Assembly (NCBI GenBank): GCA_905234125.1
Contig: CAJOGQ010000034.1
Span: 1-42,318 of the forward strand
DNA: 42,318 bases
Source: an uncultured Bacteroidaceae bacterium
Lineage (GTDB): Bacteria; Bacteroidota; Bacteroidia; Bacteroidales; Bacteroidaceae
Direction: 5' to 3'
Position 1 is the first letter of the stretch. Each line of letters starts with the position of its first letter. This document shows, one piece after another, positions 300-42,199 of the stretch. A model generated the notes under the pieces. The model ran no database searches. It was not told the origin of the DNA and worked only from the letters and a program-made list of their open reading frames with translations. The position numbers were made by a program, and so were the translations under genes.

Positions 300-322
300 G
301 TTTACTCCGACTAAACGGCCAA

Positions 323-388
323 TCAGGTAGTAGCTGATCAGCGGTCAGGTAGTAGTGGGTCGCCAACGAGGTTGTAACTGACTGGTAT
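323..388. repeat. 22-bp tandem repeat array, three units
   Basis: Units start at 323, 345 and 367, exactly 22 bp apart. The first two share TCAGGTAGTAG. The third is diverged (CGAGGTTGTAACTGA) but keeps AGGT.GTA.CTGA in register with unit one. The sequence just before (305-322, ACTCCGACTAAACGGCCA) recurs almost exactly at 4696, beside another array. Confidence 0.65.
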
Positions 389-758
389 CATGTTAAAACC
401 ACCTTTAGCAGAGGTGGGTTGGATTCGGTTTGTGTGACGATTAGACAGTCAGTTTTTGTGCCCTGGAGGAATGGGAAAAACTTGCATCGGCTGATAATCA
501 ATAGATTAGAATAATAATTTAACTTATAATAATTAATTAAATATAGTATTTAACATTAGATATTATCGATTTAACACAATATTCCTTCATTTTCCTATGT
601 TTTCCTTCGTTTCCTACTGATAAGATGCACATTGTATGGAAAGAGTCGCTATTCTTGAAATGCCACATTCCTTATTCTGACCATGCAAAAGACGCCCTGT
701 CCTTTGTCACATTTGTCACGCTTGGTTGGATAAGAAATGGAGGCGGCAGCTCCGAGTT

Positions 759-796
759 GACGAAACGGCATATCAAGGGCGACGAAACGGCATATC
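759..796. repeat. 22-bp period direct repeat, two units
   Basis: GACGAAACGGCATATC occurs at 759 and again at 781, 16 identical bases with a 22-bp period and 6 bp of differing sequence between the copies. It has the same period as the other arrays of this window but a different core sequence. Confidence 0.7.
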
Positions 797-872
797 GTCC
801 AAGAGAGGAGGAAATGCTTTGGGAAGATTGGCAATCGATGACGATGACAGCGTTTGCAAGAAAATTTGGAAT

Positions 873-903
873 CCCTAAGGGAAAAACTTGCAACCCTTAA
901 GGG
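873..903. repeat. Palindromic repeat pair, about 21-bp period
   Basis: CCCTAAGGG at 873-881 is followed 21 bp later by the palindrome CCCTTAAGGG at 894-903. The intervening GGGAAAAACTTGCA also occurs upstream at about 473. This is a weaker member of the family of 22-bp period arrays. Confidence 0.4.
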
Positions 904-979
904 TCGCAAAAAAATGAAGGAAAAGAGGCAAACGTGTCCAAGCATAGTTTACTACCATCAATTACTGGCAATCCACCCT

Positions 980-1045
980 CAAGAAGAGGGAAGGCGATCG
1001 TCAAGAAGAGGCTGCCCCATCGACAAGAAGAGGGTGAATTGTTCT
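980..1045. repeat. 22-bp tandem repeat array, three units
   Basis: CAAGAAGAGG begins at 980, 1002 and 1024, exactly 22 bp apart, with the other 12 bp of each unit differing except for an ATCG near the unit end in units one and two. A related array with core CAAGAAGC lies at 4808-4858, on the other side of the sensor genes. Confidence 0.7.
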
Positions 1046-4695: not shown

Positions 4696-4795
4696 ACTCC
4701 GACTAAAAGGCCAGCCAAGTCGGAGTAAGCAATCAGTCAGGTCGGAGTAAAACAATCTGCTAGGTCAGAGTAAGCAATCAGTCAGGTCGGAGTAG
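4696..4795. repeat. Hairpin leading into a 22-23 bp tandem repeat array
   Basis: ACTCCGACT (4696-4704) is the exact reverse complement of AGTCGGAGT (4718-4726), a 9-bp stem. The right arm is itself the start of a tandem array with units at 4719, 4741, 4764 and 4786 (periods 22, 23, 22) and core GTCGGAGTAA or GTCAGAGTAA. Units one and three are identical except for one base in the core. The left part (ACTCCGACTAAAAGGCCA) is nearly identical to 305-322. Confidence 0.7.
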
Positions 4796-4807
4796 GCTAT
4801 GAACCAT

Positions 4808-4858
4808 CAAGAAGCAAGCCGCCTGCAAGAAGCAGACGGCCTATCGTCAAGAAGCTGG
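4808..4858. repeat. Short direct repeat array with CAAGAAGC core
   Basis: CAAGAAGC begins at 4808, 4826 and 4848 (periods 18 and 22). The middle unit resembles the first unit of the array at 980 over most of its length: both start CAAGAAG and end in ATCGT. The array lies just beyond the 3' end of fabI. Confidence 0.55.
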
Positions 4859-4871
4859 TTGTTCAGCTGGG

Positions 4872-5927: not shown

Positions 5928-6001
5928 GGCGGGGTAGCTCAGCTGGTTAGAGCGTCGGATTCATAATCCGGAGGTCGAGGGTTCGAGCCCCTCCCCCGCT
6001 A
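5928..6001 (+). tRNA. tRNA-Met(CAT), elongator type or tRNA-Ile2
   Basis: A full cloverleaf folds. The acceptor arm GGCGGGG pairs with CCCCGCT (G-U at 1-72); the D-stem is GCTC/GAGC. The anticodon stem is TCGGA/TCCGG around loop TTCATAA (anticodon CAT), and the T-arm is GAGGG/CCCTC with loop TTCGAGC. CCA is not fully encoded; the discriminator is A. The paired 1-72 position argues against initiator tRNA. A CAT anticodon can also be lysidine-modified to read AUA (tRNA-Ile2), which sequence alone does not settle. Confidence 0.93.
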
Positions 6002-31999: not shown

Positions 32000-32023
32000 T
32001 GAGTTAGCTTTCTAAAAAACTGA

Positions 32024-32089
32024 CTCGATCTATTTCGCCATTTGGCTCGATTCATTTGACGTTTTTGCTTGAATCAACGGTTCCCAAGA
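32024..32089. repeat. 22-bp period repeat array between glycosyltransferase genes
   Basis: CTCGAT occurs at 32024 and 32046, and the diverged CTTGAA at 32068, exactly 22 bp apart. The array fills most of the 104-bp gap between two glycosyltransferase genes. GAGTTAGCTT at 32001 resembles the GAGTTAACTC core of the arrays near 42033. Confidence 0.55.
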
Positions 32090-41899: not shown

Positions 41900-41965
41900 T
41901 TCATTAATTCAAATCATCAAATTCATTAGTTAAAACCATAAAATGAGTTAATTGGCTACAGCAAC
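41900..41965. repeat. 22-bp tandem repeat array, three units
   Basis: Units start at 41900 (TTCATTAATTCAAATCATCA), 41922 (TTCATTAGTTAAAACCATAA) and 41944 (TGAGTTAATTGGCT), exactly 22 bp apart. The second half of unit one (CAAATCATCAAA) recurs in the array at 42033. Confidence 0.65.
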
Positions 41966-42032
41966 AACGTGGTGAAGGTTGGCTTGTTGTTTGATGTAAG
42001 GAATCGAACCCTGAAAGAGTGGAAAATCGCGT

Positions 42033-42098
42033 GAGTTAACTCAAATCATCAAATGAGTTAACTCAAACGATGAATCGAGTTAATTCAATGTTTTTGAA
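42033..42098. repeat. 22-bp tandem repeat array with palindromic core
   Basis: Units start at 42033, 42055 and 42077. The core is the palindrome GAGTTAACTC in units one and two and GAGTTAATTC in unit three. Exact 22-bp spacing places the palindromes on the same face of the helix. Confidence 0.72.
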
Positions 42099-42133: not shown

Positions 42134-42199
42134 GTCGGTAAGAAATTACCAGTTAGTCGTAATGAAACCCCTGCTTTGTCGTAATGAAACACTGCGAAA
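42134..42199. repeat. 22-bp tandem repeat array with GTCGTAATGAAAC core
   Basis: GTCGTAATGAAAC occurs at 42156 and 42178, and a diverged unit GTCGGTAAGAAA at 42134, all 22 bp apart. Confidence 0.68.

What the first reader, a model, noticed from the sequence alone, without database searches (positions are those of the whole stretch)
301..1045. Intergenic DNA built of short arrays that share a 22-bp period but not a sequence
Three arrays here have different cores (TCAGGTAGTAG at 323/345/367; GACGAAACGGCATATC at 759/781; CAAGAAGAGG at 980/1002/1024) but the same exact 22-bp step, with a weaker 21-bp pair at 873. The same period recurs at 4719, 4826, 32024, 36568, 41900, 42033 and 42134. A fixed length with variable sequence means selection or a generating mechanism acts on spacing: about two helical turns, which would put each core on one face of the DNA. 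This is seen directly. What it does (array-binding protein, replication or nucleoid role, a duplication mechanism with fixed step) is unknown.
Basis: seen in the sequence. Interest (0 to 1): 0.8.

Follow-up and report, generated by a model that had tools for sequence, protein, structure and literature searches.

The report
Intergenic DNA words spaced 22 bases
Gut bacteria related to Prevotella carry small clusters of short, often mirror-symmetric DNA words repeated 22 bases apart; the words differ between clusters and species while the spacing is largely kept, which suggests that proteins bind them side by side, though no such protein is known.

Summary
Lag-22 repeats in the window's gaps far exceed shuffles and recur in 824 kb of the same genome (33 runs, shuffle mean 2.9). 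But the arrays fall into recurrent families. Family I (GAGCCGGTAGCTC, about 40 loci) is essentially confined to this species. Family II (TGAGTTAACTCA) occurs in several species, mostly as three palindromes. With spacers of 2-31 bp allowed, 31 of 31 GAGTTAACTC doublets in five species had exactly 12 bp (period 22), with 20 distinct spacers; the places overlap and some are copies. An unrelated palindrome, GAACATATGTTC, gave 9 of 9 at period 22 in one genome, mostly copies of one array. So in family II spacing is held while sequence changes. Against a universal rule: dyad symmetry is significant in 13 of 47 arrays, some families use 23 bp, one window array has an 18-bp step where its orthologue has 22, and genomes of other families show no 22-bp excess. 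Constant-length, variable-sequence bacterial tandem repeats are in print (Subirana and Messeguer), so the kind is known. Best reading: interspersed arrays of dimer-binding sites. Binder and route of spread are unknown.

The parts
301..388 (+). 22-bp array (323, 345, degenerate 367), preceded by TTTACTCCGACTAAA-GGCCA, a 'head' that also precedes the array at 4719
759..799 (+). Two 22-bp units of GACGAAACGGCATATC, a quasi-palindrome (ACGAAACGGCATATCGT). In a relative's gap upstream of the orthologous gene (L034) three units of ACGAWACGSCGTWTCGT stand at the same step
873..903 (.). Two palindromes CCCTAAGGG / CCCTTAAGGG, 21 bp apart (TRF reports a 22-bp period at 861-903)
979..1045 (+). Three 22-bp units with core CAAGAAGAGG
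4696..4798 (+). Array of GTCGGAGTAA cores (4719, 4741, 4764, 4786; steps 22, 23, 22) after an inverted first copy ACTCCGAC, in the gap between two convergent genes
   Evidence: steps read
4808..4860 (+). Array of CAAGAAGC cores (4808, 4826, 4848; steps 18, 22) just beyond the stop of the fabI-like gene. G020 has the orthologous array at the same place with both steps 22
32014..32066 (.). Decayed 22-bp pair (TGACTCGATCTA / TGGCTCGATTCA) between an A-run and a T-run, resembling family II
   Evidence: sequence printed; resemblance judged by eye
41900..41955 (.). Degenerate family II array (TTCATTAATTCA / TTCATTAGTTAA / TGAGTTAATTGG)
42032..42087 (.). Family II array: three palindromes TGAGTTAACTCA / TGAGTTAACTCA / CGAGTTAATTCA at exactly 22 bp, then a T-run
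42134..42191 (+). Family III array (GTCGGTAAGAAAT / GTCGTAATGAAAC / GTCGTAATGAAAC, 22-bp step), next to family II here and at several other loci

Best explanation
The arrays are short interspersed intergenic elements, each a row of typically 2-4 copies of a site whose core is often dyad-symmetric, at a kept distance of 22 (in some families 23) bp. Shown: the period; its exactness in family II and in one unrelated palindrome; family II spacers that differ in sequence at constant length; arrays of mostly three (family II) or three to four (family I) units; species-restricted families; different arrays in corresponding gaps of different species. Inferred: spacing is kept because dimeric DNA-binding proteins occupy neighbouring sites side by side on nearly the same face of the helix and touch each other, so an indel in a spacer breaks the complex while substitutions are tolerated. 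Also inferred: the elements spread as whole units by an unknown route and settle where they do least harm.
For: Period: 33 lag-22 runs against a shuffle mean of 2.9, maximum 6 of 50 shuffles, in 379 gaps of 824 kb; contig-edge stretches, hence 301-1045, were not part of this count. Exact spacing, variable spacer: 31 of 31 GAGTTAACTC doublets with a 12-bp spacer when 2-31 was allowed, 20 distinct spacers up to orientation. GAACATATGTTC: 9 of 9 at period 22. In 399 genomes of the family, 51 places counted, 34 listed: 32 at period 22 in 7 genera, 2 at period 21 in an eighth. A palindrome scan that ignores sequence gives 9 triplets (7 arrays) at step 22 in 460 kb of G016, at most 1 at any other step from 13 to 44, from three unrelated palindromes and one variant. 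Family II spacers average 5.3/10 pairwise identity. Dyad symmetry at p<0.05 in 13 of 47 arrays against 4 of 150 random intergenic 22-mers. Copy number: 21 of 24 family II arrays show three matched sites, two more have a diverged third unit in phase, one is cut by a contig end. Turnover: of 22 species' atpD-upstream regions, one carries family II, one family I, one a 23-bp palindrome array.
Against: No binding protein is identified and no experiment exists. Dyad symmetry is not significant in 34 of 47 arrays, including two of the window's three in that list. In the home genome the sequence-blind palindrome scan shows no excess at 22 (11 doublets, like other steps; no triplet). Copies share a period by descent: the 31 doublets overlap within arrays, and contigs C59 and C77 end in 99 identical bases, so two of the 31 may be counted twice; four of the five GAACATATGTTC loci share nearly the same spacers. 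Independent cases are families, by eye eight or nine in the home genome. Family II cores were picked by similarity, so core conservation is partly built in. Window arrays contain steps of 18 and 23; the 18 stands where the G020 orthologue has 22, so spacing is not inviolable. No 22-bp excess in G054, G057 or the pooled other families. Bias to 3' ends is strong in the home genome, not in G016.
Confidence: 0.5

Rival explanations
1. REP/BIME-like RNA elements: the palindromes act as hairpins in transcripts (3'-end protection or two-way termination); the DNA period is a by-product of hairpin size.
For: Family II folds far better than shuffles (mean z -6.5 on both strands, 19 arrays; 60 random gap segments -0.9) and often lies between an A-run and a T-run. 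Home-genome arrays favour convergent gaps (8 of 20, 1.9 expected) and avoid divergent ones (1, 5.6 expected). REPs are reported between unidirectional and convergent genes (PMC3733652, passages).
Against: In 21 family II arrays the two spacers of one locus are no more complementary than spacers of different loci (5.7 against 6.3 of 10), so the long hairpin is not maintained. The palindromes run to the centre without a loop. One family II array lies between divergent genes upstream of atpD. Family I folds only weakly (z -1.8/-2.0, 31 arrays), as do several window arrays. G016 shows no convergent bias.
Confidence: 0.2
2. Mobile REP-type DNA moved by a Y1 (HUH) transposase that cuts hairpins; tandem order comes from the transposition mechanism.
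For: Families are dispersed and species-restricted; most family I loci share a head and a tail; four G016 GAACATATGTTC arrays carry nearly the same two spacers in the same order.
Against: No Y1_Tnp match in the home genome nor in G009, G012, G016 (98% complete) or G066, all carriers of family II; G020, also a carrier, has one. In the 19 other genomes with a match at E <= 0.001 no family II was found by the pattern searches. Other transposases were not tested, and some assemblies are only 73-84% complete.
Confidence: 0.15
3. Neutral tandem duplication by slippage or template switching with a preferred step; no function.
For: Inverted cores inside some family I arrays (GAGCTACCGGCTC for GAGCCGGTAGCTC) look like template-switch products. 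The same genomes carry heptamer arrays that look like ordinary slippage. The window's 4808 array has lost four bases against its G020 orthologue.
Against: Copy number stays near 3-4. Family II spacers average about 50% identity without a length change in 31 doublets. Two unrelated palindromes share 22 exactly.
Confidence: 0.15

Closest known systems
Constant-size, variable-sequence bacterial tandem repeats (20-23 nt and 52 nt; Subirana & Messeguer 2020/2021)
   Same: Non-coding, constant unit length near two helical turns, several families per genome with different sequences, species-specific, short conserved words in the units (for the 52-nt class also their reverses); nucleoid or protein-polymer role proposed
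   Different: Their search needed four or more units and the paper read details Bacillus; here arrays have mostly 2-4 units, often a palindromic core, and in family II a spacer free in sequence but fixed in length. The terms 'palindrom', 'Bacteroid' and 'Prevotella' do not occur in the main text of PMC8161180
REP / BIME elements and REPINs with RAYT transposases
   Same: Dispersed, extragenic, palindromic, species-restricted; 3'-end placement in the home genome
   Different: Tandem 22/23-bp phase; no Y1 transposase in five of six family II carriers
Iterons and other phased operator arrays (recalled)
   Same: Direct repeats about 22 bp apart, binding sites on one helix face
   Different: Dispersed chromosomal copies and unrelated core sequences; the flanking proteins printed showed no replication initiator to my eye (no family search was run on them)
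BOX-type modular repeats of Streptococcus pneumoniae (recalled)
   Same: Head, repeated inner module, tail
   Different: Module length and sequence; 22-bp step

Membership tests
Constant-size bacterial tandem repeats (Subirana & Messeguer) | Unit length constant (20-23 nt) across families of unrelated sequence | tested here: met
Constant-size bacterial tandem repeats (Subirana & Messeguer) | Non-coding and species-specific | tested here: met
   Intergenic by my gene calls; family I: 32 exact core hits in G000, 1 in G027, 0 in the other 43 genus genomes. Family II is shared by several species
Constant-size bacterial tandem repeats (Subirana & Messeguer) | At least four units per array (their search rule, read) | tested here: not met
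   Family I spans: four units at 17 of 41 rows, three at 15, five at 1, two at 2, one at 6; family II mostly three. This is a search threshold, not a biological definition
REP/BIME with RAYT | Dispersed extragenic palindromes | tested here: met
   (for the palindromic families only)
REP/BIME with RAYT | Y1 tyrosine (HUH) transposase in the genome | tested here: not met
   No PF01797 match in G000, G009, G012, G016, G066; one in G020. Assemblies are 73-98% complete
REP/BIME with RAYT | GTAG or CGTC tag at the hairpin foot | not tested
   Family I contains GGTAGC, but the foot position was not examined
Known structured RNA (Rfam) | Match to a family at gathering score | tested here: not met
   Only a tRNA at 5928-6001 in the window
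CRISPR arrays | Identical repeats separated by unique spacers beside cas genes | not tested
   cas genes were not searched; dispersed arrays of 2-4 short cores argue against it

The most novel reading that the evidence does not exclude
Bacteroidaceae genomes contain an undescribed class of chromosomal array elements: rows of about three palindromic operators at a rigid 22-bp step, each family read by its own dimeric protein that polymerises along DNA. Families turn over quickly, so that different species place different operator families in the same gaps. Spacing, not sequence, is the inherited and selected trait.
Probability: 0.3. Interest if true: 0.8.

Novelty: new variant of a known kind. 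Interest (0 to 1): 0.55.

Why it matters
Constant-length, variable-sequence tandem repeats have been reported in many bacterial groups without a mechanism. Here the constraint can be put to a test: a defined palindrome, a defined spacer length and natural spacer variants. If a protein reads these arrays, its partner sites and its role (nucleoid, gene regulation, or control of a mobile element) become directly accessible in gut bacteria.

Tried and rejected
Coding origin: 22 is not a multiple of three and the arrays lie in gaps by my gene calls. Heptamer slippage: the genome has a separate 7/14/21-bp class (AAAAGTG, GTTTAGG types); arrays with heptamer structure were removed before the gap and dyad tests, but not before the run counts, where they explain the lag-21 peak. 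RAYT-driven REPs. A maintained long RNA hairpin in family II: spacer complementarity within a locus is not above the null. fabI gap: a first pass missed loci with fabI on the minus strand (8 of 26 unparsed, at least 4 more with the wrong ORF), so I redid it while checking this report. A clean insertion edge in the atpD gap: G012 has extra DNA against 8 species but no sharp boundary or target duplication is visible. Family V genome-wide: 38 hits at up to 2 mismatches against 66 for the reversed control, so no evidence of dispersal. Literature: Subirana & Messeguer 2020 (J Bacteriol) is not held (one search used a DOI recalled wrongly); its content is taken from citing text in PMC8161180 and from memory. 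A search for Prevotella + intergenic + short tandem repeats + 22 bp + genome, all five required, found no paper.

Rows dropped or double: overlapping loci L172 and L173 were left out, and one hit cluster (C13:43372) was not put in. Of the 41 rows, L007 and L163 are one site, L011 and L176 give two rows each, so there are 38 loci; three rows (two of L011, one of L167) lie in a called gene. Gene calls are from my own simple codon-usage caller, so orientation counts are approximate.

Full report
What was checked. The window is contig C34 of a 2.70 Mb, 107-contig draft genome (84% complete). The nearest named relatives are uncultured Bacteroidales/Bacteroidaceae/Prevotellaceae genomes, some with yak omasum, sheep rumen or reindeer in their titles. 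In 301-1045 there are 4 exact runs of 10 or more bases at lag 22 and 1 at lag 44, none at lags 15-59 otherwise (lag 21 not counted), and none in 300 dinucleotide shuffles. In all window gaps, 8 runs of 8 or more stand against a shuffle mean of 0.16.

Beyond the window. In 824 kb of the same genome (window plus 40 stretches), lag 22 gives 33 runs of 8 or more in 379 gaps between called genes; shuffle mean 2.9, maximum 6 of 50 shuffles. Lags 19, 20, 23 and 25 give 7, 6, 5 and 3, lag 24 gives 13, lag 44 gives 16. Stretches at contig edges, including the finding's own, are not in this count. Lags 7, 14 and 21 form a second, unrelated class of heptamer arrays. TRF lists 21 intergenic rows of period 22 in the same sequence, two of them for one array.

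The arrays form families. Family I has the 13-bp core GAGCCGGTAGCTC. It has 63 hits with up to one mismatch in the genome against 11 for the reversed control. Aligned, they give 41 rows, 38 distinct loci, most with a distinctive head unit (GAGCCGGTACCCC), inner units and often a tail like GAGGCGGTGGCTC; first-to-last core spans are four units at 17 rows, three at 15, five at 1, two at 2 and one at 6. Some cores are inverted while the GAG...CTC ends stay. The exact core occurs 32 times in this genome, once in G027 and not in 43 other genomes of the genus. Family II is TGAGTTAACTCA, family III GTCGTAAKGAAAC; CAAGAAG and GTCGGAGTAA cores belong to the finding and its neighbours. At contig ends C57, C59 and C77, families I, III and II follow one another, and at C73 and C85 families III and I.

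The exactness of the spacing. A search of 45 genus genomes for two GAGTTAACTC words with any spacer of 2-31 bp found 31 places in five species. All 31 have a 12-bp spacer, that is, period 22; the reversed control gave one place in one genome. The spacers comprise 20 distinct sequences up to orientation. The places overlap within arrays, and two from C59 and two from C77 lie in contig ends that share 99 identical bases. Over 399 genomes of the family, 11 genomes in 8 of 30 genera have such doublets, 51 places in all, of which 34 are listed (ten of them already): 32 at period 22 in seven genera, and two at period 21 with nearly identical sequence in two genomes of the eighth. The unrelated palindrome GAACATATGTTC gave 9 of 9 at period 22, at five loci of one genome, four of which carry nearly the same two spacers. 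In 460 kb of G016, a scan for 12-bp near-palindromes regardless of sequence found 9 triplets in 7 arrays at step 22 and at most 1 at any other step from 13 to 44; the palindromes are GAACATATGTTC, TAATGCGCATTA, TGAGTTAACTCA and its variant TGAGTCGACTCA. The same scan in the home genome found no triplet at 22 and 2 at 23, and its doublets show no excess at 22.

Anatomy of family II. In 24 arrays collected from six species, 21 have three matched palindromes at 22-bp steps, two have a diverged third unit in phase, and one is cut by a contig end (this collection required a neighbour at 22 bp, unlike). Flanks often carry an A-run on the left and a T-run on the right. In 21 arrays spacers average 5.3 of 10 identical and cores 10.6 of 12, though cores were chosen by similarity. 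The two spacers of one locus are no more complementary than pairs from different loci (5.7 against 6.3 of 10), so a long hairpin is not maintained. Arrays with other palindromes in the same layout occur in G066 (NNCTCGAGNN types) and G016 (TGAGTCGACTCA).

Dyad symmetry overall. Of 47 non-heptamer arrays of period 20-24 from all sampled genomes, 13 have a palindrome stronger than 95% of shuffles, against 4 of 150 random intergenic 22-mers and 2 of 16 control arrays of other periods. Symmetry is enriched but far from universal, and several arrays of the finding itself are not palindromic.

Turnover at corresponding places. In 320 bp upstream of atpD in 22 species (20 fetched, one of them only 263 bases long in all, plus the home locus and G012), G012 carries a family II array, the home genome a family I array, and G064 a 23-bp array of CGGACTGCTCCAGTCCG. 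The other 19 show no palindromic array, though six have weak repeats at lags 20-24, mostly heptamer-like or A+T-rich (one at lag 22, one at lag 23). Not all 22 regions share the same neighbour gene. Against 8 species with the same neighbour, G012 has extra DNA around its array but no sharp insertion edge. Beyond fabI, in 25 relatives' loci and up to 700 bp, two carry arrays: G020 has CAAGAAGCA units at 22-bp steps 13 bp past the stop, the orthologue of the window's 4808 array, and then a family II array where the window has its GTCGGAGTAA array; G036 has a 21-bp array. The window's first step there is 18 where G020 has 22. Upstream of the gene at window 1212 (900 bp; 408 in L025), five of six relatives about 90-92% identical show no repeat run of 8 at lags 19-25, though L022 has an imperfect 11/22-bp array; the sixth (L034) has a related array with three units instead of two.

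Placement. With my own gene caller, 20 home-genome gaps hold an array: 8 convergent (1.9 expected by length, none of 5,000 draws as high), 11 tandem, 1 divergent (5.6 expected, P 0.011). In G016: 13 gaps, 2 convergent (1.5 expected, P 0.45), 10 tandem, 1 divergent (3.1 expected, P 0.13). The 3'-end preference is a feature of the home genome and is not shown to be general.

Other genomes of the order. In 220 kb each of G054 and G057, lag 22 gives 0 and 1 runs; pooled stretches from other families show no 22-bp peak. G016 shows 23 runs at lag 22 and 13 at 23.

Mechanism. Family II spacers that change sequence but not length argue that length is under selection in that family; the second palindrome and the sequence-blind scan in G016 point the same way. 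A step close to two helical turns, symmetric cores without a loop, and a small number of sites are what cooperative binding of dimers would require. The 18- and 23-bp steps in the window show that the rule can break, perhaps in decaying arrays. The spread of whole units is inferred from dispersed copies; no transposase is implicated, and Y1 transposases are absent from five of six family II carriers. These steps are inference, put at 0.5. The RNA-hairpin, HUH-mobility and neutral-duplication rivals keep 0.2, 0.15 and 0.15.

Known ground. PMC8161180 (parts 1-4 of 5 read) describes tandem repeats of constant size (20-21 and 52 nt in Bacillus, 20-23 nt in many groups) with variable, species-specific sequence, notes that this length is two turns of the helix, and proposes a protein polymer on the nucleoid or small RNAs. 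Of PMC8625621, PMC6749651, PMC3733652, PMC4679880 and PMC5771137 I saw passages only. The 2020 J Bacteriol paper could not be read. Literature searches were made; among their listings I saw no paper on such arrays in Prevotella or Bacteroides, but most subscription papers are not held. The finding is thus a new variant of a known, unexplained kind.

The fabI comparison was redone and replaced an earlier, wrong statement that no relative has an array there; counts of loci, genera and weak repeats were corrected.

Noticed in passing
L002:743-810, L003:3968, L087:12045 and many other gaps of the home genome: A separate, abundant class of heptamer tandem arrays (periods 7, 14, 21; e.g. AAAAGTG, GTTTAGG), also present in G016 and other genus genomes. 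Heptamer direct repeats (TAACTGA) are in print for some Bacteroidetes (PMC4679880, passages).
   Followed up: partly
Contig ends C57, C59, C77, C73, C85 (L174, L177, L169, L159, L171): Several contigs of the draft genome end inside or next to composite array blocks (C59 and C77 share 99 identical end bases), so these repeats probably break the assembly.
   Followed up: partly
L075:831-916: Array of CTTAGGCGCCTAAG palindromes at a 23-bp step in the home genome, so 22 and 23 coexist.
   Followed up: no
L022:3322-3365 (gap upstream of the gene orthologous to window 1212): An imperfect array with an 11-bp (one helical turn) beat of GTAGCGTTATC in a close relative, about where the window has its CAAGAAGAGG 22-bp array.
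   Followed up: no
family I arrays L011:847-903, L015, L161, L149, L142, L176: Last core replaced by the (near) reverse complement of its neighbour, giving a long inverted repeat with a 9-nt loop; looks like a template-switch event.
   Followed up: no
L044:1141-1209 (G036, beyond fabI): A 21-bp array with palindrome GAATTGATCAATTC.
   Followed up: no
window 5928-6001: tRNA gene, the only Rfam match in the window.
   Followed up: no
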